64,000 bases of DNA, taken from positions 28,206 through 92,205 of the IMG/VR virus record IMGVR_UViG_3300035698_014446; one strand, given 5' to 3'. Position numbers and translations under genes: made by a program. Shown in pieces: positions 533-64,000 of the stretch (position 1 is its first letter; each line of letters begins with the position of its first letter). The notes beneath the pieces are model-generated. The model ran no database searches, was not told the origin of the DNA, and saw nothing but the letters and a program-made list of their open reading frames with translations. This stretch comes from a virus.

Positions 533-1257
533 AATACACTGTCCATTCCTAATCTTAATAATACTGCATCTGTCCCAACAGCTATCATTCTGTAACCTTC
601 GACTACAGCCGCTTGCAAAAGGATTTTGTTTGGTTCGACTATGTGTATTCCTGCGGGGCTACCGGCATCTTTACACATGTCTAAATACCTACGCATATAT
701 TTGTCAAACAACATATCATCCATATTTATGTCTATCGAACCTTTAAGATCAAGAGGTCCAATAAACGAGCCATCAACACCGTCTACCCTGAGTATCGAAT
801 AGAGATTATCCATAGCTATACTATGTTCTATCTGGACAACTAATGATATGTTGTTATTAGCATTTTTTATGTAGTCTTTAAATGTCCGCCCGTATCCATT
901 ACAGTGTGAGTAACCGAATCCTCGCATACCCTTAGGTGGGTATTTTGTGTATCTAACAGCGGATTCCGCTTGTTCCACATTATTAACCATCGGCACGATT
1001 ATACCTTGTGCGCCAGCATCTAATGATCTACCTATCCATTTGTAGTCATTTTCCGGCACTCTAACAATCGGGGCTACACAGTGTGATGATATAACAGTAA
1101 CCAAGTTTGCTACCGACTCTATACTTATAGGTCCGTGTTCCAAATCGATACATATCCAATCGAAACAGTTGGAACCGGCCATTATGTCGGCAATAATAAC
1201 TGAGCCTGTTTGAATCCAACCACCAACAGTCGTTTTGTCTGATTTAAGAATGTTCAC
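529..1257 (-). CDS. HpcH/HpaI-family aldolase
   Basis: A 242-residue class II (metal-dependent) pyruvate aldolase of the HpcH/HpaI or 2-keto-3-deoxyglucarate aldolase family, close to full family length. Visible landmarks are FDWICIDLEHGP (residues 32-43), the RVPEN segment with the catalytic-type Arg66, the YPPKGMRG loop, the metal-ligand Glu in VVQIEH (about 143) and FIGPLDL (about 165-171). Such enzymes cleave or form 2-keto-3-hydroxy acids with pyruvate as one partner. The start is GTG 1257 because a GAGGAG ribosome site sits just upstream. It lies beside a D-2-hydroxyacid dehydrogenase, so the two may act in sequence on a keto acid or deoxy sugar. Confidence 0.85.
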   Translation of the reverse strand: MNILKSDKTTVGGWIQTGSVIIADIMAGSNCFDWICIDLEHGPISIESVANLVTVISSHCVAPIVRVPENDYKWIGRSLDAGAQGIIVPMVNNVEQAESAVRYTKYPPKGMRGFGYSHCNGYGRTFKDYIKNANNNISLVVQIEHSIAMDNLYSILRVDGVDGSFIGPLDLKGSIDINMDDMLFDKYMRRYLDMCKDAGSPAGIHIVEPNKILLQAAVVEGYRMIAVGTDAVLLRLGMDSVL

Positions 1258-2215: not shown

Positions 2216-2862
2216 GCCAATAAGGCCTCGCACTTGTAAATCCTTCCAACAATGTCCATGAACTCTCTCGGAGCAAACTCATTTATAAACACAAAATCAC
2301 CAAAAGACGAGTTTGGCTTACGCGCATTTCCAAGAAATCGAAAAGTACCGTTTGTTACGATATATTTACACACTTCGTCAACCAGTGGTGCATCCTTATA
2401 AAAAGGAGCAAAGAATACTTCTACCTGAATACACCATATAGTATTCAAGTATTTACCCAAACTTTTGATAACTTTTAAATCATATCCTTGTGTATCCACT
2501 TTCAAAAAATTAAAATGTGGCTCCATCGAATCGAGTATCGTGTCCAACCTGATTCTGTTTACCTTAATAACCTGCTTTATATCAAGGTCCGTTGGGCTTT
2601 GTGGCCTCATAGACGCAGCCGTATCTTCTACCTCAAAAAAGGATGAGCAATCCTGTTTTTTTAACACGTTAAAATCGGTTATTCCTTCCTCGTCCGAGAT
2701 AGCAAGTCGTAAATGACAATGATTCGTAGTATTGAACGAATTGTACAACGGATTAAAGGATAATATATATCCCATTTTATCCAGTTCTTTTTTCCACTGG
2801 TTATTCATGTCACCAGTAAATCCAACATCGATCAAATTGAGCTTAATATTATTAGTGCCCAT
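2212..2862 (-). CDS. FkbM-family methyltransferase
   Basis: A 216-residue SAM-dependent O-methyltransferase-like protein. LNLIDVGFTGD near the N-terminus corresponds to motif I of FkbM proteins, LRLAISDEEG to the central strand, and LKVDTQGYDLKVI to the family-defining D-x-(Q/E)-G segment. FkbM proteins methylate hydroxyls on sugars or polyketides and are common in surface-glycan loci. It begins the run of overlapping genes down to base 1 and follows a free-standing HNH gene. Confidence 0.75.
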   Translation of the reverse strand: MGTNNIKLNLIDVGFTGDMNNQWKKELDKMGYILSFNPLYNSFNTTNHCHLRLAISDEEGITDFNVLKKQDCSSFFEVEDTAASMRPQSPTDLDIKQVIKVNRIRLDTILDSMEPHFNFLKVDTQGYDLKVIKSLGKYLNTIWCIQVEVFFAPFYKDAPLVDEVCKYIVTNGTFRFLGNARKPNSSFGDFVFINEFAPREFMDIVGRIYKCEALLA

Positions 2863-2908: not shown

Positions 2909-3571
2909 CTAATTAAGTTTATCACCTTTTTTACAATTACAACTAACACAGGTAGGTACTACATTTTCTGGGGAATGTTCACCATTTTTATTAAGCGGTA
3001 TTACGTGATCTTGGGTTAGATATCCCTGTTTTGTTTCTATATCACTAATACTACAATACGCACATCTGTAATTATATTTTATTAAAATTTCTTCCCATTG
3101 TTCCGCATCAACACCAGTTCCGTTAGTTCGTTTTAGTACTTTATGATTTTTAGCATATGCCTTACATTTATCTTTGTTATTTTTACGCCATAAACTATAT
3201 GTTATACTTAATCTATCCTTATTATTTTGATAATATTTTTTATGTTTAATACGTACTTTTTTCTTATTTTTATTATACCATTTCTTTTTTCTATCTGATT
3301 CTTTTTCAGGGTTAACTTCACGGCGTCTTTTAACTTTTACTGCTATTTCTTTTTTATTATCACTATAATATTTTTTCTTTCGTGTAAGCAATTCTTTATT
3401 GTTCCTACGGTATTTCTTTGTTCGTTTACTAACACATACTTTACATTCCGAATTAAGTCCCGAACATTTACTGCTTTTTACATGAAAATACTCGGTAGTC
3501 GCCGGTAACTCATCACCACAACCCGTGCATTCTACAGTTAAATTAATTACTTTATTTTCCTTGCTACACAT
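2909..3571 (-). CDS. HNH endonuclease (free-standing homing type) 1
   Basis: A 220-residue protein with an N-terminal two-CxxC zinc finger (CTGC...CKVC), a long Lys/Asn-rich middle built from repeats of a YxxNKxxxxxxKxxx type, and a C-terminal HNH nuclease: YRCAYC, then TQDHVIPLNKNGEH, then ENVVPTCVSCNCKKGDK. It overlaps the upstream methyltransferase by 25 bases. Two closely similar genes lie at 4724 and 6039, so it looks like a spreading homing endonuclease rather than part of the glycan pathway. It ends in TAG; reading on would add 16 codons before TAA. Confidence 0.85.
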   Translation of the reverse strand: MCSKENKVINLTVECTGCGDELPATTEYFHVKSSKCSGLNSECKVCVSKRTKKYRRNNKELLTRKKKYYSDNKKEIAVKVKRRREVNPEKESDRKKKWYNKNKKKVRIKHKKYYQNNKDRLSITYSLWRKNNKDKCKAYAKNHKVLKRTNGTGVDAEQWEEILIKYNYRCAYCSISDIETKQGYLTQDHVIPLNKNGEHSPENVVPTCVSCNCKKGDKLN

Positions 3572-4723: not shown

Positions 4724-5353
4724 TCAAGCAATTACCCAGTTTACTTTATTACCTTTTTTAGTGTTACATAGTATACAACACAGTACAATGTTATTTATTT
4801 CGTGCCTACCATCTCTGTCCAATGAAATAACGTGATCTTTACTTATACCATTCGGATTATATTTAAATTGTACATTTTCCTCAAGCACCACATTACAATA
4901 CACACAACGACCATTATACTCAGTTATTTTATCAGCCCATTCTTGTGCAGTTATACCTTCATCGCCTACTAATTTTAGTAATCTACGATTGTCGTTATGA
5001 ATTTTTAATGACTCTTTATTGTTCTTACGCCATTTCTTTTGTTGTAATTTTATTTTCCTACAATTCACCTCTCTGTATTCTTTTTGTTGTATGGCTATTT
5101 TATTTTTATTATTATCGTACCACACTTTTTTCCGTTTTACTTCTTTTTCTTTATTTTTATTACGCCACTTTTTACCATAAATTTTCATTTTATTTTTATT
5201 TTTACTACGCCACTCTTTACTATGGACAGCAGCACATTTTTTACATCGTTGTTGAAAACCAAATTTTCCCTTTTTATTTTTATAAAAATGTTCAGAAATA
5301 GCTAAAAACTTTATATTACAATCAGAACATATTATAAAATTATATGTAGTCAC
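4724..5353 (-). CDS. HNH endonuclease (free-standing homing type) 2
   Basis: 209 residues with the same plan as the gene at 2909: N-terminal CSDC/CKKC finger, Lys/Asn repeat tract (WRNKNKEK-type units), then GRCVYCNVVL, SKDHVISLDRDGRHEINN and CCILCNTKKGNK at the C-terminus. It sits exactly between two methyltransferase genes with almost no spacer. This HNH carries longer loop text (NPNGISKDH) shared with the copy at 6039, so those two are the closest pair. Confidence 0.85.
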   Translation of the reverse strand: MTTYNFIICSDCNIKFLAISEHFYKNKKGKFGFQQRCKKCAAVHSKEWRSKNKNKMKIYGKKWRNKNKEKEVKRKKVWYDNNKNKIAIQQKEYREVNCRKIKLQQKKWRKNNKESLKIHNDNRRLLKLVGDEGITAQEWADKITEYNGRCVYCNVVLEENVQFKYNPNGISKDHVISLDRDGRHEINNIVLCCILCNTKKGNKVNWVIA

Positions 5354-6038: not shown

Positions 6039-6602
6039 CTATGCCAATTTTAATTCTTTACCAAATATTTTTAGTTTTTTCCAATCTAATTTATTTTTCT
6101 TTTTTGTATTATAATCTCTACAACATGGAACAACATTATCTATTTCATGTTTACCACCCTTATCTAAAGGAATAACGTGATCTTGACTAATACCATTTGG
6201 GTTATAAATATTAGGTAAATTTTCTTCCAACCTAATACCACAATAAGCACACCTACCATTATACTCAAGTATTTTGTGTGCCCATTCCTTAACAGTTGTC
6301 CCTTTGCCAGATAATTTTTTAAGAATTTTACGATTTCTTGTTTTTATTCTTATTGTGTCTTTGTTAATTTTATAGTATTTTTTATAGCGTTTTCTATTAC
6401 GTTTATTCGCCACTTCTTTGTTTTCCTCATACCATTTTTTATTACGTTTGTTTATTGATTTTTTATTTTTCTTGTATTGTATTCTATAGCGTTTTCTCGT
6501 GCATACCTTACAGTCTAATCTTAATTCGTTACCTCTTCTGTGAAAATATTCCGGCGTATCCGGAAATTCATCACCACATTTTATGCACTCTTTCATTATC
6601 AC
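6039..6602 (-). CDS. HNH endonuclease (free-standing homing type) 3
   Basis: 187 residues. It has the N-terminal CIKCGDEFP...CKVC finger, a Lys/Asn/Arg tract and C-terminal HNH: GRCAYCGIRL, SQDHVIPLDKGGKH, NVVPCCRDYNTKKKNK. The second Cys pair is broken: CCRDYN replaces the usual CxxCN, so zinc binding at that knuckle may be impaired. It overlaps the next upstream gene by four bases. Confidence 0.82.
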   Translation of the reverse strand: MIMKECIKCGDEFPDTPEYFHRRGNELRLDCKVCTRKRYRIQYKKNKKSINKRNKKWYEENKEVANKRNRKRYKKYYKINKDTIRIKTRNRKILKKLSGKGTTVKEWAHKILEYNGRCAYCGIRLEENLPNIYNPNGISQDHVIPLDKGGKHEIDNVVPCCRDYNTKKKNKLDWKKLKIFGKELKLA

Positions 6603-7288
6603 TCAAGTATTCCCATCACATCTTTAAAGAACTTACTATGCACAGTCGGGGTTATAATATTAAAGTTTACACCAGCTACCCTTAGTAATTGCATCCCTTC
6701 ACGAGTTAATTTATCTTTAACAATACACTGTTCATAAGTAGCATCATCTGTAAAGCCATTACCATAGCAATGTTGATTTCCTTCACCATTAATTAAATCT
6801 TTTCGTGTATGAAGACAAAAACCGTCAAACCCTACTGCGTAAATCCTTTTTGCACCAAGTACTTTAGCAATGGCTATCGCGAGAACCCCGGCTATCCTGA
6901 AATGTCCATACAGAATACCACCTATATACCTGTATGGTACACCCGGTTCACTTTTGTAATTCACCTGAATATAATCACCACCTACCGCTGCTCTCAAACT
7001 TTCAACGATTCCTATACCAAGCATCAGTTTGGATTGAGAACGTATGCAGTTTCTTTGATCATGTAATCTCTGATTATTAGTCCATAAATGATAATCAGGG
7101 ATGAAAAAATCAGTCATTTTATTTATACCAATGGTTACCAATCTTTCATCCTTTATAAAGTGACGAATTTTTTGATAATACTTCCTTGTACCATCACCAG
7201 CACCAACAATCACAAAATCTCTGTCTTGTTCCGTGTTTTCATACCAACTTAGGCGGTTCACGAAGCATCCTTTCAAATCCCCACTCAC
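6599..7288 (-). CDS. Unknown protein of the glycan locus (DUF115-like fold possible)
   Basis: 229 residues that I do not recognise firmly. RDFVIVGAGDGTRKYYQKI near the N-terminus looks like a nucleotide-binding loop; later GINKMTDFFIPDYHLWTNNQR and AKRIYAVGFDGF recall DUF115-type proteins of flagellin and surface-sugar modification, where a GINxx-x-D-Y segment precedes a ligand site. It overlaps the upstream radical SAM gene by 50 bases, an unusually long overlap; no better internal start was seen. A sugar-related role is suggested mainly by its neighbours. Confidence 0.4.
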   Translation of the reverse strand: MSGDLKGCFVNRLSWYENTEQDRDFVIVGAGDGTRKYYQKIRHFIKDERLVTIGINKMTDFFIPDYHLWTNNQRLHDQRNCIRSQSKLMLGIGIVESLRAAVGGDYIQVNYKSEPGVPYRYIGGILYGHFRIAGVLAIAIAKVLGAKRIYAVGFDGFCLHTRKDLINGEGNQHCYGNGFTDDATYEQCIVKDKLTREGMQLLRVAGVNFNIITPTVHSKFFKDVMGILE

Positions 7289-8189
7289 GAGTTAATTTGC
7301 GATAATTAATAGAAGATAATCCAAGTCTCGGACATCTTTGGCACTCTACTGGTAATTCTGATACTTTGGTTGAATTGTAAAATTTATTCTTAAATTCAGA
7401 CATAATGGGATTTTGATTATTATAAGTCCCATATTTTTTGTTGGAATGAATGTGACAACACGGAGTAACATATCCGTTTAAACCAATAGTAATTCTATGG
7501 TTTATTATTTGAACACATAAACATCTTTCATGGTACTGACCCGGTAAATTCAACTTTATGTTAATGTTAAAATCGTTTCGAGCAGTTAATTCGCTAATAA
7601 AGTTTAAAAAATTAGAGTCTGGTTTTATTGTTTTGTACTTATCTACTACAGGATTATACTGGTGAAATCTGATTGTGTTGACACCCAATTCTTCACAAAA
7701 TTTAATCACATCAATTACATCCTCGTGATCGCCTGACATGAGTATGTAATTAATGGTTATCTTCTTTCTGTCAGGAGTAGACACAGCCAGTTTTATATTC
7801 TTAATTACTCTGTCAAATTGTTTTTGTGTTCCACCACGACGTACGGCATACTTGTATGCTGTGTACCCGTCAAGACTAATTACCATGTGCATATACTTAA
7901 TCATATCAACAAATTTATCGAGCAATTGACCATTAGTTATTACTTTGTTAACAATTACTCCGTTTTCGTTGGCATAACTAACCATTTCCCTGTACCGGGA
8001 ATGCATCAGTACTTCACCCTCGCTTTGTAGTAACAATTTATTGTAACCACAACCCTTCAAATAATCAATTATTCTCTGATATTCAGACATCGGCATTTCG
8101 GAATCAGTCTTCTCGTTATGTACCCATAAACAATGAGGACATTTGAGATTACATTTATCCGTAATATGTATGACCGCTACTTTATTCAT
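7239..8189 (-). CDS. Radical SAM protein with SPASM-like C-terminus
   Basis: 316 residues. CNLKCPHC near residue 13 is the CxxxCxxC cluster that binds the SAM-cleaving 4Fe-4S centre; SEGEVLMH is the GGE-like SAM contact and ITNGQLL the following strand. The C-terminal part has further Cys residues (CLC, CCHIH, CQRCPR), as in SPASM/twitch proteins that hold auxiliary clusters. Family members do peptide, sugar or cofactor chemistry. Its ATG is next to the stop of the APS-kinase-like gene. Confidence 0.82.
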   Translation of the reverse strand: MNKVAVIHITDKCNLKCPHCLWVHNEKTDSEMPMSEYQRIIDYLKGCGYNKLLLQSEGEVLMHSRYREMVSYANENGVIVNKVITNGQLLDKFVDMIKYMHMVISLDGYTAYKYAVRRGGTQKQFDRVIKNIKLAVSTPDRKKITINYILMSGDHEDVIDVIKFCEELGVNTIRFHQYNPVVDKYKTIKPDSNFLNFISELTARNDFNINIKLNLPGQYHERCLCVQIINHRITIGLNGYVTPCCHIHSNKKYGTYNNQNPIMSEFKNKFYNSTKVSELPVECQRCPRLGLSSINYRKLTREWGFERMLREPPKLV

Positions 8190-31907: not shown

Positions 31908-33412
31908 GATGGAAGTAATCAATGGTTAGTACATATAGTATTTCGGAATAATTGTGTAGCAATTCGAGAATCTGCTTTGTTTCGTTAGAAAATAAAGTAT
32001 GATTCGAGAATATTTTCAACCTTAAAAGGTGTATTTTACGTTCTATAAGGTATATTTTTATATCTCATATACGTTCTAATATATCTTTATACCCATTTAT
32101 GTTGAAAATATTTGTACTCCAGTTATAGTTTTATTATTGCCTACATATATATATACTCAATGTTGACCCGGTATTTGTCAATATTCAGCACCGTCCGTTC
32201 TCTTACCCCGGTCCCGGCATCTGCGCGGCTGAGTCTGCGCCGCCGCCCGGCTTCCCGCCCGCGCGCTCCCCGTCCGGCGCGCGCCCGCGCTGCTCTGTGC
32301 GCATACGTCTAGCGCGCCTCGGTGCGATGCACGACTCGGCGCGCTGGTCTTCCCCCGCACCTGTCCGGCGCGCCTCGGTGTGGGGTCTGGCTGGGCGCGC
32401 CGGTCCGCCGTCGCCGCCCGTCCGGCGCGCCCGCCTTCCGTGCGCGCTTGGGCGCGCCGGTCACTTGTTCAAGGTGTCTCCTCGCGCGCTCCGGGTTGGC
32501 GCTCCAATCCGTGTCTCGCGCGCCGCCCTGCCAATGCCGCCTGCGCCAGCCGGGTAGCCCTGCCGTCCCCACCAGCTGAGCACCGCTAACCTGAACGCAC
32601 CAACCGGACCCCCGCCAATCGGGCGCGCTCTGTTGGGAAAAACCAGCCAAGCCGAAAAAAGGCGGGTTGGCAAAACAAAAAGCCAAGCCAAGCCAAACCA
32701 TACCCCCGCTCTCCACCAACCACGCACCCCCCGCCAGCGCAAGCGGGCACGAGGAAATGCTACACGCCAAGGCGAAAAACCAGCCCCCACCGGGAAAAGC
32801 TAGCCGGGAAAAGCCACACCCGGTTACGCAAAGCCAGCCGTTGGGACGAAAAGCCAGCCTTTGCCAGCAAAGCCCCCGCTGAGGAAACGCGCCAACCGAG
32901 GCAGAGAGCCACTAAACCGGGTGAAGCCCCACGGAAAAGGGGCCGCCGCACCCACACCCATAGGGCCGCCGCACCGACGCAAACACCCCCGCCGCACCAA
33001 CACCATCGCCCCCCGCCGCAACCCCGCCCAACAGACCGAGAAGCACCCACCCGCGCCAACAACGCCCGGCAAAGCGAAACGGAAACACAAAACCCGAGAG
33101 CCGAGGCCGAGCGATAAGGCCGAGCAACAAGGCTGAACCGCCAAAGCGGGTTAAGTTGTGTGGCGTCCGCACCACGCCGCTCCACCGCACGGGAAGCCGC
33201 GCCCGGGGCCAAGAATCACCGGGGCGTCGCCCCCACCTCGACCGCGCCAACGTAGACGGGAAGCCAAAGGAAGGGCCACGCCGAGGTCGAGGACAGGGCA
33301 ACACACCAAGACGGGCGCAGAAATGTGGTCCGCTCGACACATCGCGTAGTCCCGACACTACGCCACCGGACCGCGCACCCCCTCTCCTGGCCTCCCGTGA
33401 AGGGTACGCGCT
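31908..33412. other. Long region without convincing genes: AT-rich repeats, then GC-rich T-poor tract
   Basis: 31960-32135 is AT-rich with short direct repeats (ATTCGAGAAT twice, ACGTTCTA twice, TATATTTTTATAT). From about 32180 composition jumps to very GC-rich, with repeated CCGGCGCGCC-type words (32270-32460). At 32640-33140 the plus strand is almost free of T and repeats an AAAAGCCAGCC-like unit every 20-30 bases. Long open frames exist on both strands but overlap one another, lack ribosome sites and have low-complexity Pro/Arg/Ala text, so I do not call them. An origin, packaging or regulatory region is possible. Confidence 0.5.
33344..33363. promoter_or_regulatory. Inverted repeat upstream of first sigma-54 promoter
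   Basis: GCGTAGT-CCCGAC-ACTACGC, perfect seven-base arms with a six-base spacer, about 50 bases upstream of the -24 element. Wider arms GGTCCG/CGGACC surround it. The six-base spacer recalls the TGTTG-N6-CAACA sites near the other two promoters, though the sequence differs. Confidence 0.45.
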
Positions 33413-33413
33413 C

Positions 33414-33429
33414 TGGCACGCGGGTTGCT
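33414..33429 (+). promoter_or_regulatory. Sigma-54 promoter 1
   Basis: TGGCACGCGGGTTGCT: perfect -24 (TGGCACG) and -12 (TTGC) elements with GG-N10-GC spacing. It is followed by CTTTTTTAGG, which is nearly identical downstream of the two other copies at 36203 and 39149. It lies about 110 bases before ATG 33543. Confidence 0.8.
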
Positions 33430-33542
33430 CTTTTTTAGGTGGGGGCCGCCCACCGGGCGGCTCCCGCCGCCCCCCTGTCGGGGGCGGACCACGAATCGGG
33501 GCCACCCGTCCCCACGAGTCGGGCAGAATAGGAGCACCAACC

Positions 33543-34016
33543 ATGACCACAAAACAAACGAACGAAGAAAGGGCCGCCGCACACCGTGCCGCCGCCACCG
33601 AACACGAAGCCCGTGCTGCCGGACCCGCCACAGGAGGCCGGACCGACAACCACGAAGCCCGCGCCGCCGAACACCGGGCCGCCGCCCAAACACACACAGC
33701 AGCCGCCGCCGCACAACGAACAGCAGCCGCACCGGCAACCAGCACCGAGAAAAAGTGCACCGACGCCAACGCCGCCGACGTCACAACGACACACGCCACC
33801 GACGCCACGCTCGCCGCCGCCGACGCCCGCAACGGCGTACCGGCAACCAGCACCGAACAAGCCGCCGCCGGAGCCGCCGCCGAAGCCGCAGCGGCGCAGA
33901 ACGAAGCCGAGCGCCAGACGGACCGGGGTCGCCCCGACCATGCCGCTCGCGCCCGGACCGAAGCCGCCGAAGCGCACGATGCAGCAGCAGCACATCACCG
34001 CACCGCCGCCGAGTAG
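33543..34016 (+). CDS. Ala/His-rich low-complexity helical protein
   Basis: 157 residues, over a third Ala, with spaced Arg, Glu and His (ERAAAHRAAATEHEARAAG, AAEHRAAAQTH). The pattern predicts one long polar helix or coiled protein. The preceding AGGAGCA site fixes ATG 33543. The coding strand is very poor in T. It shares AAEHR-x-AA and ATEH motifs with the AT-rich gene at 35445. It is the first gene after sigma-54 promoter 1. Function unknown. Confidence 0.6.
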   Translation: MTTKQTNEERAAAHRAAATEHEARAAGPATGGRTDNHEARAAEHRAAAQTHTAAAAAQRTAAAPATSTEKKCTDANAADVTTTHATDATLAAADARNGVPATSTEQAAAGAAAEAAAAQNEAERQTDRGRPDHAARARTEAAEAHDAAAAHHRTAAE

Positions 34017-34185
34017 CACAACAGCCCCGCCCCTCGGCCAGCGAGCCGGGGGGCCGTCGGGCCAGCCCCCGCAACAGCGGGGGCGAGCCCGGCGCGACCG
34101 AGCGACCCGCACAAGCGGGAAGCCGACGACGCCAAACGGGACCAGTCCGGACCCGACCAAACCGGGCAGAACAGGAGCAACGATC

Positions 34186-34755
34186 ATGGGAACCAGACAA
34201 AGCAAGAACAGCACAGGCCGCAAGGCCACAGAGGCCAAAACAGGAACCGCAACCCCCAACACGATCAGCAAGGCCACGCCGCCGAGCGCACCCGCGCCGA
34301 CCCCCGCCGAAACCACCGTGCCCACCTCATCGGTCGTCGATGTCCGCGACCTCTCAGTTGCCGAGCTTCGACTACTGCTGACAGAGGCCAAAACACGCGA
34401 AGCTCCCGCCAAGGCCGCAGCCAAAGGACAGGCTAAGCTCGCCAAACTCCGGACCTATGCGGTCCGGCAGCGGGCGTGGGCCGAGTCGCAGACTGCCAAA
34501 GCTAGCACGGCGTGCGACCGGGCCGACAAGGCCGAGGCCGCACTGGCGACCTACGAGGCCAAGTTGGGCATCGACCCCGCGACGGAGGCCGAAATCGCCG
34601 CGACTCTCGCCGCGCTGATCGCCTCCGGGCGAGTCGTACAAGTCGATTCGTCCTCTCTCGTCGGGCCAGAGCCGGAGGGGACCGAGGCTGAGACCGCAGT
34701 CGCCGACGTCGAAACCGCCAAGACCGACGACAAGGCCGACTCCGCCGCCGCGTAG
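34186..34755 (+). CDS. Coiled-coil protein, GC-rich paralogue
   Basis: 189 residues from ATG 34186 (AGGAGCA upstream). An Ala/Thr/Pro-rich start is followed by LSVAELRLLLTEAKTREAPAK, KLAKLRTYAVRQRAWAESQTAKAS and EAALATYEAKLGIDPATEAEIAATLAALIASGRVVQV. These match the protein at 37239 segment by segment (KLAK-x-RTYA-x-RQRAWA-x-x-QT-x-KA, (A/T)-x-YE-x-K-x-G, SQGRV/ASGRV). Predicted helical coiled coil. The two paralogues differ greatly in GC content. Function unknown. Confidence 0.7.
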   Translation: MGTRQSKNSTGRKATEAKTGTATPNTISKATPPSAPAPTPAETTVPTSSVVDVRDLSVAELRLLLTEAKTREAPAKAAAKGQAKLAKLRTYAVRQRAWAESQTAKASTACDRADKAEAALATYEAKLGIDPATEAEIAATLAALIASGRVVQVDSSSLVGPEPEGTEAETAVADVETAKTDDKADSAAA

Positions 34756-35027
34756 TGCGGAACCAGCTCCACCGACGCCCCCGCCTCGTGCGGGGGCCAT
34801 CGGGCCGACGCCCCGACCAACCGGGGGCGTCCGCCCGGTGACGGACCGCCAACGGGGACGGTGCACGTCCGCTGCGAGCGGACGCCGCCTCCGGGGGCCG
34901 ACTGCGCCTCCGCTACGAGCGGGGAGCGTCGGGGGCCAGCGCGCGAGCGCGGGCCGCCCCGCCAAGGCGGGCGAACAGACACGGGCACGGGTCCGCCCAC
35001 GAACGGCCCAGAACAGGAGCAAGAACA
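34756..35027 (+). other. Hairpin-rich GC intergenic leader
   Basis: No gene. It holds many strong inverted repeats (for example GCCCCCGCCTCGTGCGGGGGC near 34786 and GTCCGCTGCGAGCGGAC near 34867). It ends with the shared leader (CCCACGAACGGCCCAGAACAGGAGC) before ATG 35028. No T-tract follows the stems, so they are more likely RNA-stabilising or processing structures than terminators. Confidence 0.5.
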
Positions 35028-35288
35028 ATGGAACACGAACAAGAACAGAAAAGAGCAATCGTTATCAGCTATCGCGAGCTGTACAAGCTTGGTATGCCCA
35101 ACGACGAGATACACGGTATTCTCGTTGTGGGACACGACAAGTGGGCAGCTATCGGGGCTACGGTTGACCTCTACATGGATCCCAACGAAAACACAGCGTA
35201 TCTCGTCGTCCGGGGTGTTAGCGAAGCAATCATAGCGCTAGTACACGAAATGACTGACCAAATGATAGACATCAGCTACACTGACTAA
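35028..35288 (+). CDS. Unknown small alpha/beta protein
   Basis: 86 residues after CAGGAGCAAGAACA. AIVISYRELYKLGMPNDEIHGILVVGHDKWAAIGATVDLYMDPNENTAYLVVRG suggests a small alpha/beta fold. No family recognised. GC falls from this gene onward toward the genome average. Confidence 0.5.
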   Translation: MEHEQEQKRAIVISYRELYKLGMPNDEIHGILVVGHDKWAAIGATVDLYMDPNENTAYLVVRGVSEAIIALVHEMTDQMIDISYTD

Positions 35289-50454: not shown

Positions 50455-51387
50455 TCATACACAGGTCACATGGATTGGTTGAAATATAGTCCTCTTTTTC
50501 GACAGTAATTCCTCAGTTATCAATTCCATCTTTTCCCGCCCCAAATCACCGGGGTCCCCTTCCATGTGTACAAACACAGGAAATGCGTTCAATCTAAAGT
50601 TTCTTAATTTTTGTGCAACCATCATAATAGTTATGGCTGCGTCAGGGTCCCCTATAACAAAAACTGTTTTTACTTCATCGTCTCTTAGTTGGAGAATTTG
50701 TGTAGAGTTGATGCTTGAACCCATTATCGCATATGAAAACGGAGTCACAAAATGATCGAATACCCCTTCCACCAGTGATACCACGTCCCGGTGAACTTTT
50801 ACGTGTCTACCAAACAGAGGCTTTTCTGTGTTCTCCGCATCTTTCGTCCTTATGTCTTGGTTCCCCATCATCTTCCGACCCATATAGTAGACTATCTCTC
50901 CTGTCCCATCCCAGTACGGGAAGTACACACGGGGGTCCATAGGACACACGTATACCCTGTAGTCCCGTATCTGTTCCTTCGTGAGTCCCCTTTTGAGGCA
51001 ATACTTGAAAGCTCTCTCGCACAGAGACAAACTGTTCTGTATGTGTCTGGCCGTCGCTGGTTCTGATGGGTACAAAACACTGTATATAACAAATGCGTTC
51101 TTCGGTAGAACAATTTTTCCGGTAGACTTACTACCGAGTAAGTCTTTCGATAGCAAATTTTGAGTTAATTTCTTCCATTGTACCCTATTACTAAGTATTA
51201 CACTGGATAACCGTCCACCACAAGGGCACTTAAAACAGTTATATCTACCATTTGATATGTTAACGCTGAAATGAGATTCATCACCGCATTCTGGACAGGC
51301 TATGAATAACTCTCTACCTGCAATATGGTACGCTCCGTCATGTATGTGTGCCACTACGTACTGATATACTTGCTTGAGATTATTCAT
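50455..51387 (-). CDS. DNA primase (zinc-finger and TOPRIM)
   Basis: 310 residues from ATG 51387. FIACPECGDESHFSVNISNGRYNCFKCPCGGRLSSVI is the zinc-binding domain. VSLVEGVFDHFVTPF holds the TOPRIM Glu, and VFVIGDPDAAITIM plus EGDPGDLG hold the Asp pair. It is shorter than DnaG and lacks a clear helicase-binding domain, like many phage primases. It makes RNA primers for the fork driven by the helicase at 54846. Confidence 0.85.
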   Translation of the reverse strand: MNNLKQVYQYVVAHIHDGAYHIAGRELFIACPECGDESHFSVNISNGRYNCFKCPCGGRLSSVILSNRVQWKKLTQNLLSKDLLGSKSTGKIVLPKNAFVIYSVLYPSEPATARHIQNSLSLCERAFKYCLKRGLTKEQIRDYRVYVCPMDPRVYFPYWDGTGEIVYYMGRKMMGNQDIRTKDAENTEKPLFGRHVKVHRDVVSLVEGVFDHFVTPFSYAIMGSSINSTQILQLRDDEVKTVFVIGDPDAAITIMMVAQKLRNFRLNAFPVFVHMEGDPGDLGREKMELITEELLSKKRTIFQPIHVTCV

Positions 51388-51566
51388 CAATCATGAACCT
51401 TCATCAGTCTATACATATGAAAATTGATCATTAAAGACATGGCTTCGTCGTGGGTAAATCCGGCTTTTATCAAAGCAACAAAATAATTCCTGAGATATGT
51501 AGGCCACACCTCACAAACCATGGCCATTTCCTGATCAATGTGCGATCTGACTTCATCGTTTATCAT
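51387..51566 (-). CDS. Unknown 59-residue helical protein
   Basis: MINDEVRSHIDQEMAMVCEVWPTYLRNYFVALIKAGFTHDEAMSLMINFHMYRLMKVHD, all-alpha. It overlaps both neighbours and is in the replication operon. Similar small helical proteins occur beside primases; function unknown. Confidence 0.55.
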   Translation of the reverse strand: MINDEVRSHIDQEMAMVCEVWPTYLRNYFVALIKAGFTHDEAMSLMINFHMYRLMKVHD

Positions 51567-53955: not shown

Positions 53956-54252
53956 TTACCAATCTAATGCGTTTGAATCAATACAAGCTATAGCAAAAGT
54001 ACAAGATACGCCTAAATCTTCTAATTCCTTTTTTACTTCTATTAACGATTTTCCGTGAACTGCATCAATCAGTTCATCATACTCTTCAACGATTATTCCC
54101 AACAATTCGTGTCTTGACAACCACGCACCCGCTCCCTTTTCTTGAAGTCTCATGCGTAATTTAGTAAGTACTTTTGAATGCGCCACACGAATAGTTTCAT
54201 CTTTTATTTGTGACCGGTGATCTTTGTCGCTCCTTTTTTGAGTCTTACTCAT
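53956..54252 (-). CDS. MazG-like nucleotide pyrophosphohydrolase, candidate MazZ
   Basis: 98 residues, a single all-alpha NTP-PPase domain. EEYDE (56-60) and ELED (76-79) give the EExxE-x15-ExxD metal motif of MazG/dUTPase-like enzymes. It shares the start MSKTQK with the next upstream gene. In phages with PurZ, MazZ turns dGTP into dGMP, the PurZ substrate, and so this gene 4 kb from PurZ is a good candidate. The motif alone does not fix the substrate. Confidence 0.65.
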   Translation of the reverse strand: MSKTQKRSDKDHRSQIKDETIRVAHSKVLTKLRMRLQEKGAGAWLSRHELLGIIVEEYDELIDAVHGKSLIEVKKELEDLGVSCTFAIACIDSNALDW

Positions 54253-56117: not shown

Positions 56118-56573
56118 TTAGTTTTTTGTAGAACCGAATCCTTTCTCTCCACGAACAGTCTCCGGCATTTCCTCCTCAACTACTGTTAACACCGGAGTGG
56201 CAACAATTATTAGTTGCGACAGACTTTCCCACGGTTTAATCAATACCGGTCTGTCAATATGCATAAGATTTGGATGCCAAACAAATGAAAATATAGGTCC
56301 GGTGTACCCACTATCTATCAGGCCGCCTACCACGAACAGCTTTTTCTTAAAGAACGTGGATGATCTTGCCCGGACCAGTCCACAGAATCCGTCCGGGATT
56401 TTAACCCGTATTCCGGCATTAACCTGTATGCTCTGGTATGGTGCAAGGGTTAATGTTTCATCTGTAGCATTAAACAGATCAAACCCGGCATCACCTTTCA
56501 AAGCTTTACTAAATTCTGCTCTGTCACGTACTTCATCGTTATCGTATTGAACAATTATCTGCGGATTACTCAT
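56118..56573 (-). CDS. dut: dUTPase (trimeric dUTP diphosphatase)
   Basis: 151 residues with all five motifs: GDAGFDLFN (1), RARSS (2), GGLIDSGYTGPI (3, with Tyr over the uracil pocket), SLSQLIIV (4) and RGEKGFGST (5, Gly-rich). It hydrolyses dUTP to dUMP and lowers uracil in DNA. It belongs to the nucleotide part of the operon, next to the kinase and PurZ. Confidence 0.93.
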   Translation of the reverse strand: MSNPQIIVQYDNDEVRDRAEFSKALKGDAGFDLFNATDETLTLAPYQSIQVNAGIRVKIPDGFCGLVRARSSTFFKKKLFVVGGLIDSGYTGPIFSFVWHPNLMHIDRPVLIKPWESLSQLIIVATPVLTVVEEEMPETVRGEKGFGSTKN

Positions 56574-57214
56574 ATTTGCATTTCCTTTATTGACAAAGCT
56601 TTATAGTTCCCAGAAGCAATCATCTTCTTTGTTAATTGGTGTATTTCAATCATCGATGCTCGGTCTGTGTCGATTCTCTGTTGCAAGAACTCTTTTTCCT
56701 CACTACTACCACACAAGGCCATCCGCCCACTGATTCTGTCTTTGTGGTCGTTCTCGTCCACGTACAAAAATCGCATTTCAACATTTACGTTCCGCGTGGA
56801 CGCGAAAGAACTGTTCATCAACCACAATAACTGTTGTGGCTTTCTGGGGAATGAATCAGTTATTACATCCATGTCATTATAATACGCAAGATTCATAGCG
56901 TGGTGCATCATGCTATTTACCCAATGATCTGTCGCCTCCGGAGAACCCGGATTAGGCAAATCCTTGAAAAATTCAGCACCCACTGTCTCTCGGAAGAATC
57001 TACCTATACTTAAGGTAAGTGGTCTATTTTTCCCTTCGTACTCCGACGCATACCGACCATCCAGATCGGCGATAGCTCTCATATACGTTGTTTTTCCTGA
57101 ACACGCTACGGCATTCAGACAAATTAAATTTATACCCTTCATAACATCCTTTCCTGTACTAAGAGGCGCTGGAACATAGCCGCAACTTTTACAATCATCG
57201 CGTGAATCAACCAT
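56570..57214 (-). CDS. P-loop nucleoside/nucleotide kinase-like protein
   Basis: 214 residues. The N-terminal 25 residues carry CKSC; then LICLNAVACSGKTTYMRAI is the P-loop (A-x-x-x-SGKTT). DSFPRKPQQLLW and a later DRISGRMALC (lid-like Arg) fit a deoxynucleoside monophosphate kinase. Next to PurZ it might phosphorylate dZMP or dGMP, but no substrate residues prove this. ATG 57214 is used; an internal start before LICLNAV is possible. Confidence 0.65.
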   Translation of the reverse strand: MVDSRDDCKSCGYVPAPLSTGKDVMKGINLICLNAVACSGKTTYMRAIADLDGRYASEYEGKNRPLTLSIGRFFRETVGAEFFKDLPNPGSPEATDHWVNSMMHHAMNLAYYNDMDVITDSFPRKPQQLLWLMNSSFASTRNVNVEMRFLYVDENDHKDRISGRMALCGSSEEKEFLQQRIDTDRASMIEIHQLTKKMIASGNYKALSIKEMQI

Positions 57215-57220
57215 GGTGCA

Positions 57221-58375
57221 TCAATCCTCTATATATTGAAATTCTTCATTTTTCATAAATCGGTCATGTCCGCACTGTATACAACTGTCATGCTTATCGG
57301 AAATCGTACCACATTGACAACACTTCCAGTCCATCACTCGAAGTACTCTCATATCCTTGTTCATCGCCCCGGTCCCCAACAGCGTCAGCTTACATCCGTG
57401 GTCCGCCAGCAGTTTTCCCTTATCACTCAAAAACTCTTCCAATTCGTGCTGGTTGATGTAATTAACGAAATTCAGGAACGCGTAATCCGGTTTTACCGCA
57501 CACAAGAACCGTTCAACCTGCTTGTCCGACCATGTAAACAATCGGCGAATCCGTTTAGTTACCGTGGTCCTCTCTTCCACATTCATCCCAATCTTCGCAC
57601 TCAAATCAACCCACGTCATTTCGTGCTGATCATGGTAGAAAGGGCCGCTGGTCCCGCCGGGGGTATTACCTACTCGTATGGGGTAAGTCCTGAGGCTTGC
57701 GAAGATGGAACCGCAATCCTTCACGCTTACTCCGGCGTTATCCAGCACCCTTCCCACCATGCAATCTCTGCTCGTGCAATACGGCCACTCGAATCCGTTG
57801 TTTAGCCCAAGGTCAAAACCTTGTGCTGTCTCCAGTAACGCTGTCTTGCCGTGCTTGAGCAGTCTCTGCATCAACTTATGTGTATCGCATACAAACTCTC
57901 TCAGTTTGGGATTATCTTTAGCCAAATGCGCCTTTTCTGGACTTCTCCACATTTTCCTAATCACTGACGCACAGCTACCCTGCATAGTACTGGATATGCT
58001 GTTTAGTTCTTCTCGCTCCGTAGCTGCGTCTGCATCACACAAAACGGTTACTAACGGGTGTATATGTAGTGAAAATTTCCTCGTTGCAAACTGTTCACGC
58101 AACAATTCCTCAAAAACCCTTGCTTCCTGAATCACTGCGTGGGGACCGACGATCACATTTTCTATGTAATCAAAACTTATTGCCGATGGTAGGGCTTTGG
58201 TGATGTGTGATACCCCATCATCACTTACATATGTATGCCCGGCGTTCGGCATGAAATCACACACAGCGACGGTTATTTCTGGATACGTATTATACAAATA
58301 TGCAGCCAATTTTCCTTTTCCAGTTGACCCCCACTGTCCATCGATAATCACGTTGGCTTTTCCTGTTTGAATCAT
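57221..58375 (-). CDS. purZ: PurZ: 2-amino-dAMP-succinate synthetase homologue
   Basis: 384 residues. IIDGQWGSTGKGKLAAYL (10-27) is the PurA P-loop-like start, but the catalytic Asp of PurA (WGDEGKGK) is Ser17, a hallmark of phage PurZ. AQGFDLGLNNGFEWPY-CTSRD matches the IMP/dGMP-site region, again in PurZ form. The C-terminus adds a zinc ribbon (WKCCQCGTISDKHDSC, CGH). The enzyme joins aspartate to dGMP with ATP to make the precursor of 2-amino-dAMP. Start: ATG 58375 with AAAAAGGAAC upstream. Confidence 0.88.
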   Translation of the reverse strand: MIQTGKANVIIDGQWGSTGKGKLAAYLYNTYPEITVAVCDFMPNAGHTYVSDDGVSHITKALPSAISFDYIENVIVGPHAVIQEARVFEELLREQFATRKFSLHIHPLVTVLCDADAATEREELNSISSTMQGSCASVIRKMWRSPEKAHLAKDNPKLREFVCDTHKLMQRLLKHGKTALLETAQGFDLGLNNGFEWPYCTSRDCMVGRVLDNAGVSVKDCGSIFASLRTYPIRVGNTPGGTSGPFYHDQHEMTWVDLSAKIGMNVEERTTVTKRIRRLFTWSDKQVERFLCAVKPDYAFLNFVNYINQHELEEFLSDKGKLLADHGCKLTLLGTGAMNKDMRVLRVMDWKCCQCGTISDKHDSCIQCGHDRFMKNEEFQYIED

Positions 58376-58406: not shown

Positions 58407-59570
58407 TTATGCCTTAATCACGGCTAACGGTTTTAGTTCAACCACTATATCTACTAAATCTTTTTGATTTTCCATGACAACTGTTATATCTTTATACGCG
58501 CCGGATGCCTCATCCAAATCTGTTACTGATCGAATAGAATGGATAATGTTGGAATCATTGAGAAACTTAATTTCTTTCTCAAGATCAAGTTCACGCCTTG
58601 CTTGATTCCTGCCCATTTTTCTACCAGCACCGTGGGAACAAGACATAAAACTATCACGACAACCCTTACCCTTAACAATGTAACTTGATGTACCTTGTGA
58701 CCCAGGTATTATTCCAATTTCACCATCTTTGGCGGACGTTGCACCCTTACGATGAACTATAACATTTTTACCAAAATGATTTTCCCACCGAGCATAATTA
58801 TGGTGTACATCAATTGGGGAATCGTTAAAATTTTCTGATGTTGGTCCATCGAGGCAGTACTCTACTTTTTTCATCATTAATGCTCTACTATTTTTTGCAA
58901 ACATTAGTGCGTAATTCATAGCCTCTATGTATTCTTTAGCTTCGTTTGTTTCTATCGGTAGAAACGCAAGACCATCCTCACCTTTACAGACAGGAATGTT
59001 AGAATACCATCTTTCACAAAGTGATTGTGCGATTTTGTTGTACTCTTTAGCTATTTTAAGTCCGAAATTACGACTTCCGGAATGAAGCATTATCCATATA
59101 TAACCATCAGACCCCTGTTGTATTTCTATAAAATGGTTTCCACCACCAAGCGTCCCCATCTGCTTTCTCGCTGACGCAAGTTGTTTTTGTATTACTGGTA
59201 TATCTGGTGCGACAGCAAACCCCGACCAGTATTGGTTTTCTTTATGATGATTGAATCCTAACGGTATTACTTCTCTAATAGCAGACATAACCATCTTTAA
59301 TTCTGCAGTAGTAATAGATTTTCTGGCAGTTTTAACAGCACACATACCACAACCAATATCCACACCTACCGCGTTAGGAATTACTACGCCGTTTGTGGCT
59401 AAAACTCCTCCTATTGGCATGCCGTACCCTCTGTGAGCATCCGGCATTATAGCTACGTGTTTAAACGTAAATGGGAGATTTGCTAAATCTATAGCTTGTT
59501 TCACAGCCCCATCCTCAATGTCGTCTAACCACATTTTTATAGGTTTGCTCTCTGTTATTAATACTTTCAT
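58407..59570 (-). CDS. rtcB: RtcB-type RNA ligase
   Basis: 387 residues, near family length. Landmarks: GVDIGCGM (metal Asp/Cys, 69-76), LGGGNHFIEI, LHSGSRNFG, HHNYA (metal His), VIVHRKGATSA, IPGSQGTSSYIV and CSHGAGRKMGR (guanylate-accepting His). RtcB seals 2',3'-cyclic phosphate and 5'-OH RNA ends, and in phages repairs tRNAs cut by host defences. Its ATG overlaps the upstream stop. Confidence 0.93.
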   Translation of the reverse strand: MKVLITESKPIKMWLDDIEDGAVKQAIDLANLPFTFKHVAIMPDAHRGYGMPIGGVLATNGVVIPNAVGVDIGCGMCAVKTARKSITTAELKMVMSAIREVIPLGFNHHKENQYWSGFAVAPDIPVIQKQLASARKQMGTLGGGNHFIEIQQGSDGYIWIMLHSGSRNFGLKIAKEYNKIAQSLCERWYSNIPVCKGEDGLAFLPIETNEAKEYIEAMNYALMFAKNSRALMMKKVEYCLDGPTSENFNDSPIDVHHNYARWENHFGKNVIVHRKGATSAKDGEIGIIPGSQGTSSYIVKGKGCRDSFMSCSHGAGRKMGRNQARRELDLEKEIKFLNDSNIIHSIRSVTDLDEASGAYKDITVVMENQKDLVDIVVELKPLAVIKA

Positions 59571-60255: not shown

Positions 60256-60393
60256 TTATCGCTCCGTCGCTATCTCGCATGCAGTAGCACATTTGCTACT
60301 GTACTCACACTTTGCACATTCCTTGTCTTTCAAATCGAAACATGCAGGGTTCCCCAAACACATCGGGGCCTGTTCGTCACCATCAAAAGTCAC
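60256..60393 (-). CDS. Small Cys-rich protein
   Basis: 45 residues from GTG 60393, or 35 from the internal ATG. MCLGNPACFDLKDKECAKCEYSSKCATACEIATER: six Cys in an iron-sulphur or zinc-like spacing. It overlaps the end of the ssDNA-binding gene by 11 bases. Confidence 0.55.
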   Translation of the reverse strand: MTFDGDEQAPMCLGNPACFDLKDKECAKCEYSSKCATACEIATER

Positions 60394-61492
60394 CCGCCGT
60401 TAAGGCAAGTTCCTCCAACTTGACATCGTACTGCTCACTGTTTCCATCTTCGATAACGACATCATTACCGTCAATACTCTTTACGGTGCTGATTTCCTTT
60501 TCGCCGTCGTAATGGACTTCGGAACCTACTTTAATTTTTGGCTTCGGTTCAGGCTCTTCTTTAACGTAGAGCTTCAACTGGTTCATCGTCGCGTCGTACT
60601 CATCACCCTTCTCGTCCTCAATAACTACGTAGTCGCCGTCTACCTTGTTGACATGGTAGACAACTTCTTCGTCTTCATAGAGAACAGCCACACCGACATC
60701 AATCACGTTCTCGTCGGCAGGATGGTCTGGCTCAGAAGTCTTGTTCTTCTTGGATTTGGTTTTGGCCTTTGTAGTCTTGGACTTTGCGGTCTTTGAAGTC
60801 TTAGCTTTGGCCTTACTACCGCCTTTAGCCTTGTCTTTCTTACCCGCCACCTCAAGTTCCGCGTCGTCGAATAATTCACCGACTTTGTAGCCCAATTCCT
60901 CACATTGTGACTTAAGGCCTACGTCACCGAAATCACCAAGTGGGTCCGATACCTGTTTCATCAATGCTGGACTTACCGGCCACGGTTGTCTCTGTGGCTT
61001 TGCGGTGTAGGTAGTATCGAGTCCCGAACCCTCACGCTTGCAATTCAAAGCTGTACCGGGTTTCGGTTCCAGAATATCCGCCCAATCCTCGTCCATAACG
61101 TACTCTGCTACTTGATCATATAAGGTAGTGGGTAGCATCCACTTTCTTACGGACGGTTGTTGATCGTTAATGTCAACGCCGTTCACCGTGTACCTTGTCC
61201 GTGTGTTGTACAACAGTTCATCACCGGCATCACGTCTTTTCTTGTTCACCTGACAGAAAGCACACGGTTCACCGAATGTTTGCTCCCTGCAGACACCAAG
61301 AGCTTTGCCACCCTGCGCATTGACCTCGCGGTGTTCAGAAAAAGGACGTGCGAAAATATTCTCGCCTTCCTCATCCTTAAATTCAAGGATTCTTAGGGTG
61401 GTAGTAGAATCCTTCTTAAGGTATCGAAACTTGCCCGATCGCTGTTTACTGTCGGCCATCTGTTTCTTAACCTTGTCCCTGTTAACAGCCAT
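60383..61492 (-). CDS. gp32-like single-stranded DNA-binding protein with added tail repeats
   Basis: 369 residues, GC-rich and probably abundant. GKFRYLKKDSTTTLRILEF, then VCREQTFGEPCAFCQVNKKRRDAG (zinc CxxC pair with the upstream Cys) and RTRYTVNGVDIND fit the core of T4 gp32-type proteins. A Lys/Ala/Thr linker (KAKGGSKAKAKTSKTAKSKTTKA) leads to two SH3/KOW-like repeats (VGVAVLYEDEEVVYHVNKV and VGSEVHYDGEKEISTVKSI). The tail may bind other replication proteins. Confidence 0.75.
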   Translation of the reverse strand: MAVNRDKVKKQMADSKQRSGKFRYLKKDSTTTLRILEFKDEEGENIFARPFSEHREVNAQGGKALGVCREQTFGEPCAFCQVNKKRRDAGDELLYNTRTRYTVNGVDINDQQPSVRKWMLPTTLYDQVAEYVMDEDWADILEPKPGTALNCKREGSGLDTTYTAKPQRQPWPVSPALMKQVSDPLGDFGDVGLKSQCEELGYKVGELFDDAELEVAGKKDKAKGGSKAKAKTSKTAKSKTTKAKTKSKKNKTSEPDHPADENVIDVGVAVLYEDEEVVYHVNKVDGDYVVIEDEKGDEYDATMNQLKLYVKEEPEPKPKIKVGSEVHYDGEKEISTVKSIDGNDVVIEDGNSEQYDVKLEELALTAGDF

Positions 61493-62733: not shown

Positions 62734-62982
62734 TTATTTACTAAAATTTTGATCAAGTGGACACAGTTTTTCACGATGTGGAATACTAATAGTACCATCA
62801 GGAATGGTAATTCTCATACTTAAAGGGCAATCATCACATTTTCTGTTTTTACCACCGGGCAGATGTATACATGTTTCTGGTTGACAAATTTTAAATAACG
62901 CTTCTCTTACTGTCTCAGAATGTACCAATGCACTACGTTTCACATAGCTTTCCATTTCCTTTGCTGTCAGTAAAAACTGCAT
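62734..62982 (-). CDS. Small Cys-rich protein
   Basis: 82 residues. Helical start, then CQPETCIHLPGGKNRKCDDCPLSMRI and EKLCPLD: a likely zinc or iron-sulphur binding module. It abuts the polymerase stop, so it is in the same operon. Confidence 0.55.
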   Translation of the reverse strand: MQFLLTAKEMESYVKRSALVHSETVREALFKICQPETCIHLPGGKNRKCDDCPLSMRITIPDGTISIPHREKLCPLDQNFSK

Positions 62983-64000
62983 TACGCTGCCTCCTTCAAT
63001 TCTTTATAGTTGGGACCAGTAGTTATGTCTATTTCCATAGGAACTGGTTTATCTCTCCAATAATCTTCTGTGTTATGAATTAACATTCCTTCATTTACCG
63101 CCTGCATTACTTGTCTCTGGTGCGACTTTTTAAAGTCAACTATTATACTATCATGAACTGTGCCAACCACTAATGCTGGTAGTTTTCTCTCTTTAAATAA
63201 ATCCATCACTCTACACATACCTATCAAACAAAAATGATTTCCAGTTGACTGAATTGGGTAATTGCTTGCTTGTCTCTCCGCTCTCTCTTTTAACATTCTA
63301 TTAGACAGCATCGCATTCGGAAGATGTCTTGTACCACTGAATAGATCGTGTGATTTCCCTGTTCTACGTGCTATCTTGTGAAATTTCACTCTGAAATCTT
63401 TTATACCACCAAATCTTTCAAAGTATACTTTTTGTAATTCTCTTGCATGTTCAAGGGAAATACCGGCTGCCAATGCTAACCCTTCTGGAGTTTGACCGTA
63501 CATCTGACCAAGATTCATCCTCTTACCTAATTGCCTTTGTGTGAAATTCACATCTTCATACAACACATTGTGTATCTTCGCGGCAACGAATTTATGTAAA
63601 TCAAATCCTCCATTCAGTGCCTCACACATAGCTGGGTCTTCCGACCATCCCGCGAGAATCCTCGGTTCAAGCTGTTTGTAATCTGCACTTAGTATTAACC
63701 CAAACTTACCAAATCTTGACGAGAAAACGATCTTTATTATAGATTCAGTCGGTATATTCTGCAGATTTGGTTCTGTAGAAGATAGTCGCCCGGTGAGAAC
63801 TACGTCCTGATTATAATTGGTATGTACACAACTATTCGGTCCTGTAAAAGTTTCCCATTTCTCAATAAAACCAGAGAACATTGCATTAATCGATCTAAGT
63901 GCGTTCAAATCCTTTACTATCGGGTGTGATTCCTCAAAGGGTTCTAACGCTCTTTTATCAAATGAAAAACTCTCTGATTTAACTCCATCTTTCCATTTGA
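62982..64000 (-). CDS. Family A DNA polymerase, N-terminal part beyond the window
   Basis: The frame stays open to base 64000 (the last codons read KWKDGVKSESFSFDKRALEPFEESHPIVKDL), so only about 340 C-terminal residues are seen. Motif A: LILSADYKQLEPRILA. Motif B: RQLGKRMNLGQMYGQTPEG, where the Phe/Tyr762 position of E. coli Pol I is Leu. Motif C: GTVHDSIIVDF. All catalytic Asp residues are present. In a PurZ phage it is a candidate DpoZ, which prefers 2-amino-dATP; whether a 3'-5' exonuclease is present cannot be seen. Confidence 0.9.
   Translation of the reverse strand, partial: KWKDGVKSESFSFDKRALEPFEESHPIVKDLNALRSINAMFSGFIEKWETFTGPNSCVHTNYNQDVVLTGRLSSTEPNLQNIPTESIIKIVFSSRFGKFGLILSADYKQLEPRILAGWSEDPAMCEALNGGFDLHKFVAAKIHNVLYEDVNFTQRQLGKRMNLGQMYGQTPEGLALAAGISLEHARELQKVYFERFGGIKDFRVKFHKIARRTGKSHDLFSGTRHLPNAMLSNRMLKERAERQASNYPIQSTGNHFCLIGMCRVMDLFKERKLPALVVGTVHDSIIVDFKKSHQRQVMQAVNEGMLIHNTEDYWRDKPVPMEIDITTGPNYKELKEAA

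What the first reader, a model, noticed from the sequence alone, without database searches (positions are those of the whole stretch)
57221..58375. PurZ signature predicts a 2-aminoadenine (Z) genome
The protein keeps the PurA fold text but has Ser in place of the catalytic Asp in WG(D)EGKGK and PurZ-type CTSRD. This substitution is a known mark of phage PurZ. With a MazG-like enzyme and a PolA in the same operon, adenine in this phage's DNA is probably replaced by 2-aminoadenine, which would block many restriction enzymes.
Basis: partly seen in the sequence, partly recalled or inferred. Interest (0 to 1): 0.85.

Follow-up and report, generated by a model that had tools for sequence, protein, structure and literature searches.

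The report
PurZ phage with a linked nucleotide kinase
This uncultured phage carries PurZ, the enzyme phages use to make DNA with 2-aminoadenine in place of adenine, and it belongs to an undescribed branch of such phages in which purZ is paired with a nucleotide kinase and the usual helpers (dATP hydrolase and Z-selecting polymerase) are missing.

Summary
The 384-aa protein at 57221-58375 (-) has Ser17 where PurA has its catalytic Asp (WGSTGKGK), plus CTSRD. All 90 PurZ-type rows separate from PurA (SH-aLRT 99), and the closest structures are phiVC8 and S-2L PurZ. So the phage very probably makes the dZTP precursor. The supporting arguments are weaker. The MazG-like gene is marginal and not conserved. 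The PolA is not a DpoZ: it keeps the helix-O Tyr and lies outside the DpoZ clades. DatZ, DUF550/DUF5664 and DmtZ are absent from the complete circular genome (about 92.1 kb). Full A-to-Z replacement therefore stays unproven. New here: in 34 of the 87 fetched purZ loci an adenylate-kinase-family gene directly follows purZ. A search seeded only with the kinase found 14 loci, and all 14 carry purZ. The kinase is sometimes fused to a dUTPase of either of two unrelated folds. Three members have a family B polymerase instead of PolA. I propose a third Z-DNA gene set: PurZ, an ADK-type dZMP kinase and a dUTPase-type (d)NTP hydrolase. The PurZ assignment is strong; the kinase substrate is inferred from linkage, fusions and a conserved adenine-type Gln.

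The parts
57221..58375 (-). purZ, 2-amino-N6-succinyl-dAMP (dSMP) synthetase; Ser17, CTSRD 200-204; unique C-terminal Cys-rich (zinc-ribbon-like) tail from about residue 350
   Evidence: tail absent in the 72% identical relative L018
56570..57214 (-). adenylate-kinase-family NMP kinase, 6 nt after purZ; proposed dZMP kinase
   Evidence: A3 profile vs PDB UMP-CMP/adenylate kinases 3.6e-9; model pLDDT 82.7, Foldseek prob 1.0 to ADK/UMP-CMP kinases; next to purZ in 34 of 87 fetched loci and in 14 of 14 kinase-seeded loci
56118..56573 (-). trimeric-type dUTPase, DutZ-like; overlaps kinase by 4 nt; proposed dNTP pyrophosphohydrolase feeding dGMP to PurZ and/or lowering dATP
   Evidence: Pfam dUTPase 1.1e-13; DutZ HMM 1.3e-25; fused to the kinase in L114/L115
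54846..56105 (-). DnaB-like replicative helicase, conserved in the same module
60383..61492 (-). gp32-like ssDNA-binding protein, conserved upstream of purZ in relatives
62982..64000 (-). C-terminal part of PolA (about 840 aa; the N-terminal part, with a family-4 UDG-like domain, is at record bases 1-1631, across the circle junction); Tyr kept in helix O, not DpoZ
53956..54252 (-). short MazG-like protein with EExxE and ExxD motifs; doubtful role, not conserved near purZ in relatives
   Evidence: Pfam MazG 18.9 bits, cut-off 22; MazZ HMM E 0.006; absent near purZ in relatives
50455..51390 (-). DnaG-type primase, conserved in the module

Best explanation
The phage makes dZTP and puts 2-aminoadenine (Z) into its DNA by a third gene set, distinct from the two described. 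Proposed steps: (1) the DutZ-like dUTPase hydrolyses dGTP/dATP, giving dGMP and lowering dATP; (2) PurZ joins dGMP and Asp using ATP to give dSMP; (3) host PurB cleaves dSMP to dZMP; (4) the ADK-family kinase encoded next to purZ phosphorylates dZMP to dZDP, the step that the literature leaves to host or uncharacterised enzymes; (5) host NDK gives dZTP; (6) a PolA outside the DpoZ clades (or, in some relatives, a family B polymerase) incorporates it. Shown here: PurZ identity, conserved pocket residues, kinase family, purZ-kinase linkage and fusions, absence of DatZ and of a DpoZ-clade polymerase. Inferred: the kinase and dUTPase substrates, incorporation into DNA, and how complete it is.
For: PurZ: tree; dGMP and ATP pocket residues Ser17, Asn44, Thr130, Gln185, Arg144, Arg234, Val235, Asn302-Phe303-x-Asn305 match phiVC8/S-2L (residue roles from PMC8342488); fold match to phiVC8 PurZ 2.5e-33, TM 0.88, against Pyrococcus PurA 9.6e-27. 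Kinase: follows purZ at touching or overlapping ends in nearly all of 34 loci; all 14 kinase-seeded hits have purZ; DGFPRxxxQ with Gln in 28 of 29, the Gln that contacts the adenine 6-amino edge in adenylate kinases and is Asn in UMP-CMP kinases (general knowledge; 7e9v shows DGFPRNQDN). Fusions: kinase with trimeric dUTPase (L114/L115) and with the unrelated dimeric dUTPase_2 (L042, L046, L048, L051); records carry one or the other, never both. The cultured Bacillus phage vB_BpsS-140 also has purZ with adk and dut. No DatZ in the window genome and 22 related records, with the phiVC8 control positive.
Against: No biochemistry. NCBIfam PurZ score 214.8 is below its cut-off of 300. PolA is not DpoZ-like and DatZ is absent, so Z-for-A selectivity is unexplained. 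A dUTPase may simply hydrolyse dUTP. GATC (observed/expected 0.63) and CTAG (0.15) are depleted, which does not suggest full protection of A-containing sites, though the test is weak without a host. Linkage within one clade is not many independent events.
Confidence: 0.6

Rival explanations
1. PurZ makes dZTP, but without DatZ and without a Z-selective polymerase the genome is a mixture of A and Z (partial substitution).
For: No DatZ; PolA keeps Tyr and sits outside DpoZ; GATC and CTAG avoided.
Against: S-2L reaches full replacement with an unselective PrimPol, helped by DatZ (PMC8342488; PMC8065100 abstract); a DutZ-like enzyme could play that part here; one PurZ0 phage (Hiyaa, L015) also has Tyr at this place.
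Confidence: 0.3
2. The linked kinase is a general (d)AMP or nucleotide-pool kinase (for example recycling AMP/ADP made by PurZ and host enzymes, or handling dAMP from dATP hydrolysis), not a dZMP kinase.
For: The ADK family normally acts on AMP; the motif fits any 6-amino purine; dUTPase fusions fit pool control in general.
Against: Linkage to purZ in all 14 kinase-seeded loci and only weak similarity to cellular ADK suggest a specialised substrate.
Confidence: 0.25
3. The protein is a PurA-type adenylosuccinate synthetase making AMP as an auxiliary metabolic gene.
For: PurA superfamily (Pfam PF00709); NCBIfam PurZ cut-off not reached.
Against: Ser replaces the catalytic Asp, ATP-type and not GTP-type residues, tree inside PurZ at 96-99 support, structure nearest to PurZ.
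Confidence: 0.03

Closest known systems
PurZ subgroup (phiVC8, S-2L, SH-Ab 15497) with DatZ and MazZ/DUF550 and DpoZ-2
   Same: Ser for Asp, STGKG loop, dGMP and ATP pocket residues, tree position within PurZ; purZ close to replication genes
   Different: no DatZ, no DUF550, no DpoZ; adds an ADK-family kinase and a dUTPase directly after purZ; PolA fused to a UDG-like domain; larger genome
PurZ0 set (Wayne, Ghobes, Hiyaa) with DutZ, DmtZ, DUF5664-1, DpoZ-1
   Same: dUTPase-family gene near purZ instead of DatZ
   Different: PurZ is not PurZ0 (support 96-99); no DmtZ or DUF5664 by HMM; kinase present; polymerase not DpoZ-1
Bacillus phage vB_BpsS-140 (MH884512, cultured)
   Same: purZ, an adenylate kinase gene and a dUTPase gene in one genome; no DatZ
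   Different: kinase only remotely alike (E about 1); DmtZ-like gene present; adk and dut lie about 9 kb from purZ; PurZ branches deeper
Adenylate / UMP-CMP kinases
   Same: P-loop, DGFPR-type motif, fold
   Different: sequence identity 13-20%; base-site loop follows the adenine type (Gln); phage-borne, linked to or fused with nucleotide hydrolases

Membership tests
PurZ (2-aminoadenylosuccinate synthetase) | Ser in place of PurA catalytic Asp | tested here: met
   Ser17; Ser in all 87 relatives, Asp in E. coli and Pyrococcus PurA
PurZ (2-aminoadenylosuccinate synthetase) | branches with PurZ, apart from PurA and PurZ0 | tested here: met
   SH-aLRT 99 from PurA, 96 from PurZ0
PurZ (2-aminoadenylosuccinate synthetase) | ATP-binding residues N-F-x-N/Q as in phiVC8/S-2L | tested here: met
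   Asn302, Phe303, Asn305
PurZ (2-aminoadenylosuccinate synthetase) | NCBIfam NF038379 curated score cut-off | tested here: inconclusive
   best family match but 214.8 bits against cut-off 300; cut-off probably set on the few cultured members
PurZ (2-aminoadenylosuccinate synthetase) | turns dGMP, not IMP, into the succino product | not testable with these tools
   needs an enzyme assay
DpoZ polymerase | Tyr to Phe in helix O (F459 of phiVC8), characteristic of both clades per PMC8599892 | tested here: not met
   window PolA has KRMNLGQMYGQ
DpoZ polymerase | membership of DpoZ-1 or DpoZ-2 clade | tested here: not met
   window lies with kinase-clade PolAs, apart from both
DatZ | HD-domain dATPase gene in the genome | tested here: not met
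   none by HMM in the whole record; phiVC8 control positive
MazZ / DUF550 / DUF5664 | homologue near purZ | tested here: inconclusive
   MazG-like gene scores E 0.006 with a MazZ HMM; DUF550/5664 absent
DmtZ | NDT-family protein matching DmtZ HMM | tested here: not met
   NDT-like gene at L002:1760-2143 is not hit by the DmtZ HMM; it resembles NDT-like genes of other phages
DutZ | trimeric dUTPase fold family near purZ | tested here: met
   Pfam 1.1e-13, DutZ HMM 1.3e-25
DutZ | hydrolyses dATP and dGTP | not testable with these tools
   needs an enzyme assay
Adenylate kinase family (NMP kinase) | P-loop, D-[GS]-F-P-R-x3-Q motif and fold | tested here: met
   window copy reads DSFPRKPQQ
Adenylate kinase family (NMP kinase) | Pfam ADK gathering score | tested here: inconclusive
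   window kinase alone has no Pfam match; relative L042 reaches 27.0 against cut-off 26.8

The most novel reading that the evidence does not exclude
A large uncultured lineage of tailed phages makes Z-DNA with a dedicated, purZ-linked dZMP kinase (free or fused to either of two unrelated dUTPase folds), without DatZ and without DpoZ, and with either a UDG-PolA or a family B polymerase copying Z-DNA.
Probability: 0.45. Interest if true: 0.75.

Novelty: new variant of a known kind. Interest (0 to 1): 0.6.

Why it matters
The conversion of dZMP to dZTP has been left to host or uncharacterised enzymes, and Z-DNA replication has been tied to DpoZ or to PrimPol plus DatZ. A conserved phage kinase beside PurZ would supply a missing dedicated step, and PolA or PolB enzymes outside DpoZ would show that Z selectivity can arise in other ways. 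Both are testable with single purified proteins, and useful for making Z-DNA in the laboratory.

Tried and rejected
A single-sequence scan of viral contigs found no relative; the 11-row alignment found 428. The NDT-like gene upstream of polA was considered as DmtZ and rejected: the DmtZ HMM does not hit it. The MazG-like gene as MazZ is not supported. PolA as DpoZ is rejected. A palindrome-avoidance test as evidence for or against Z protection is inconclusive without a host: GATC 0.63, CTAG 0.15. The Cys-rich PurZ tail as a conserved domain is rejected: it is absent from L018, has model confidence below 50, and has no clear relatives.

Full report
Setting. The window is bases 28206-92205 of a 92,205-base IMG/VR virus record. 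Its two ends share an exact 127-base direct repeat, so the genome closes to a circle of 92,078 bp. Terminase and tape-measure genes make it a tailed phage. The nearest terminase is 39% identical, so the host is unknown. PolA runs across the junction and is intact at about 840 aa: an N-terminal UDG-like domain, exonuclease and polymerase.

Observation. The protein at 57221-58375 (-) is PurZ. Ser17 replaces the PurA Asp, Thr18 replaces Glu, and CTSRD is at 200-204. The best structures by sequence are phiVC8 PurZ (1.2e-52) and S-2L PurZ (8e-39), with Pyrococcus PurA far behind. By predicted fold (pLDDT 85) the best match is again phiVC8 PurZ, TM 0.88. Residues that contact dGMP and ATP in S-2L PurZ (PMC8342488) are kept, among them Asn302-Phe303-x-Asn305 for ATP; E. 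coli PurA has Thr-Lys-x-Asp there. In the tree, 90 PurZ-type rows separate from PurA at 99 and the window's group from PurZ0 at 96. No cultured phage is closer than 43% identity.

A distinct branch. An alignment search found 428 relatives in viral contigs, of which 80 were fetched, plus 7 in genome contigs. The window's nearest relatives are L018 (72%) and L019-L040 (about 46-52%). They form a branch that does not contain the DatZ-bearing cultured phages. Across the fetched set, the DatZ label and the kinase label each need only two changes on the tree, and only L062 has both.

The linked kinase. The gene 6 nt after purZ (56570-57214) had no match in 50,697 cultured phage records and no Pfam match alone. 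A homologue follows purZ in 34 fetched loci, mostly with touching or overlapping ends; a few of these are near-duplicate contigs. A search seeded only with the kinase gave 14 loci, every one with purZ upstream. Its profile matches UMP-CMP and adenylate kinases (3.6e-9), and the predicted fold agrees. The base-site motif ends in Gln in 28 of 29 distinct copies, as in adenylate kinases. From general knowledge that Gln contacts the 6-amino purine edge, so dZMP fits and dGMP does not. No paper in the library holds PurZ, adenylate kinase and phage together. The NAR 2026 study leaves the step from dZMP to dZTP to host or uncharacterised enzymes (PMC12884076).

Fusions and hydrolases. L114/L115 encode kinase plus trimeric dUTPase in one protein; L042, L046, L048 and L051 encode kinase plus the unrelated dimeric dUTPase_2. 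L029/L030 have overlapping kinase and dUTPase frames. Whole-record searches show one hydrolase or the other, not both, in the kinase branch. DutZ of PurZ0 phages is a dUTPase-family enzyme that cleaves dATP and dGTP (PMC12884076). I infer, but have not shown, the same here. An ordinary dUTPase role is not excluded.

What is missing. HMMs for DatZ, DUF550/DUF5664, DmtZ and PurB find nothing in the window genome, with positive controls in known Z-phages. DatZ is also absent from 22 window-related records while phiVC8 rings. The PolA keeps helix-O Tyr; DpoZ enzymes of both clades carry Phe there (PMC8599892). Nearly all DatZ-branch PolAs here have Phe, while the kinase-branch PolAs that could be read have Tyr except L062 (Phe) and L078 (Thr); Hiyaa, a PurZ0 phage, has Tyr as well. 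On the PolA tree the window's group lies apart from both DpoZ clades. Three members with 126-136 kb records (L025, L035, L037) have a family B polymerase and no PolA.

Verdict. PurZ and dZTP-precursor synthesis: very likely (about 0.9). A dZMP kinase role: about even. Full replacement of adenine: open. The cultured vB_BpsS-140, with purZ, adk, dut and a DmtZ-like gene, offers the quickest chemical test of the general idea.

Noticed in passing
window 32165-35030, extending to about 36700: An island of 60-65% GC in a genome of 40% GC, with a repeated leader (GGGCAGAACAGGAGCAACCATG-like; copies at 33520, 34163, 35005, 35422) before successive small ORFs.
   Followed up: partly
window 2909-3571, 4724-5353, 6039-6602; L002:2618-3172: Several HNH endonuclease genes, most with a shared N-terminal Cys motif, scattered between other genes, probably homing endonucleases.
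   Followed up: partly
window 1244-2233 and 7239-8189: A D-2-hydroxyacid dehydrogenase and a radical SAM protein within a cluster of metabolic-looking genes.
   Followed up: no
window 62982-64000 joined to L002:1-1631: The PolA N-terminus is a family-4 UDG-like domain whose first motif reads GSAPS instead of GEAPG, so it may be inactive; relatives L051 and L114 keep GEAPG.
   Followed up: partly
L025, L035, L037 (records G011, G016, G017): PurZ-kinase phages with family B DNA polymerase and no PolA found in 126-136 kb records.
   Followed up: partly
window 58407-59570: An RtcB-like RNA ligase directly upstream of purZ, not found near purZ in the fetched relatives.
   Followed up: partly
window 57221-57330 and 57140-57214: About 0.2 kb of extra sequence between the purZ and kinase cores, encoding Cys-x-x-Cys motifs in both proteins; absent in L018.
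   Followed up: partly
L010:14611-15096: Cultured Bacillus phage vB_BpsS-140 carries a DmtZ-like gene annotated only as hypothetical (HMM 3e-9).
   Followed up: partly
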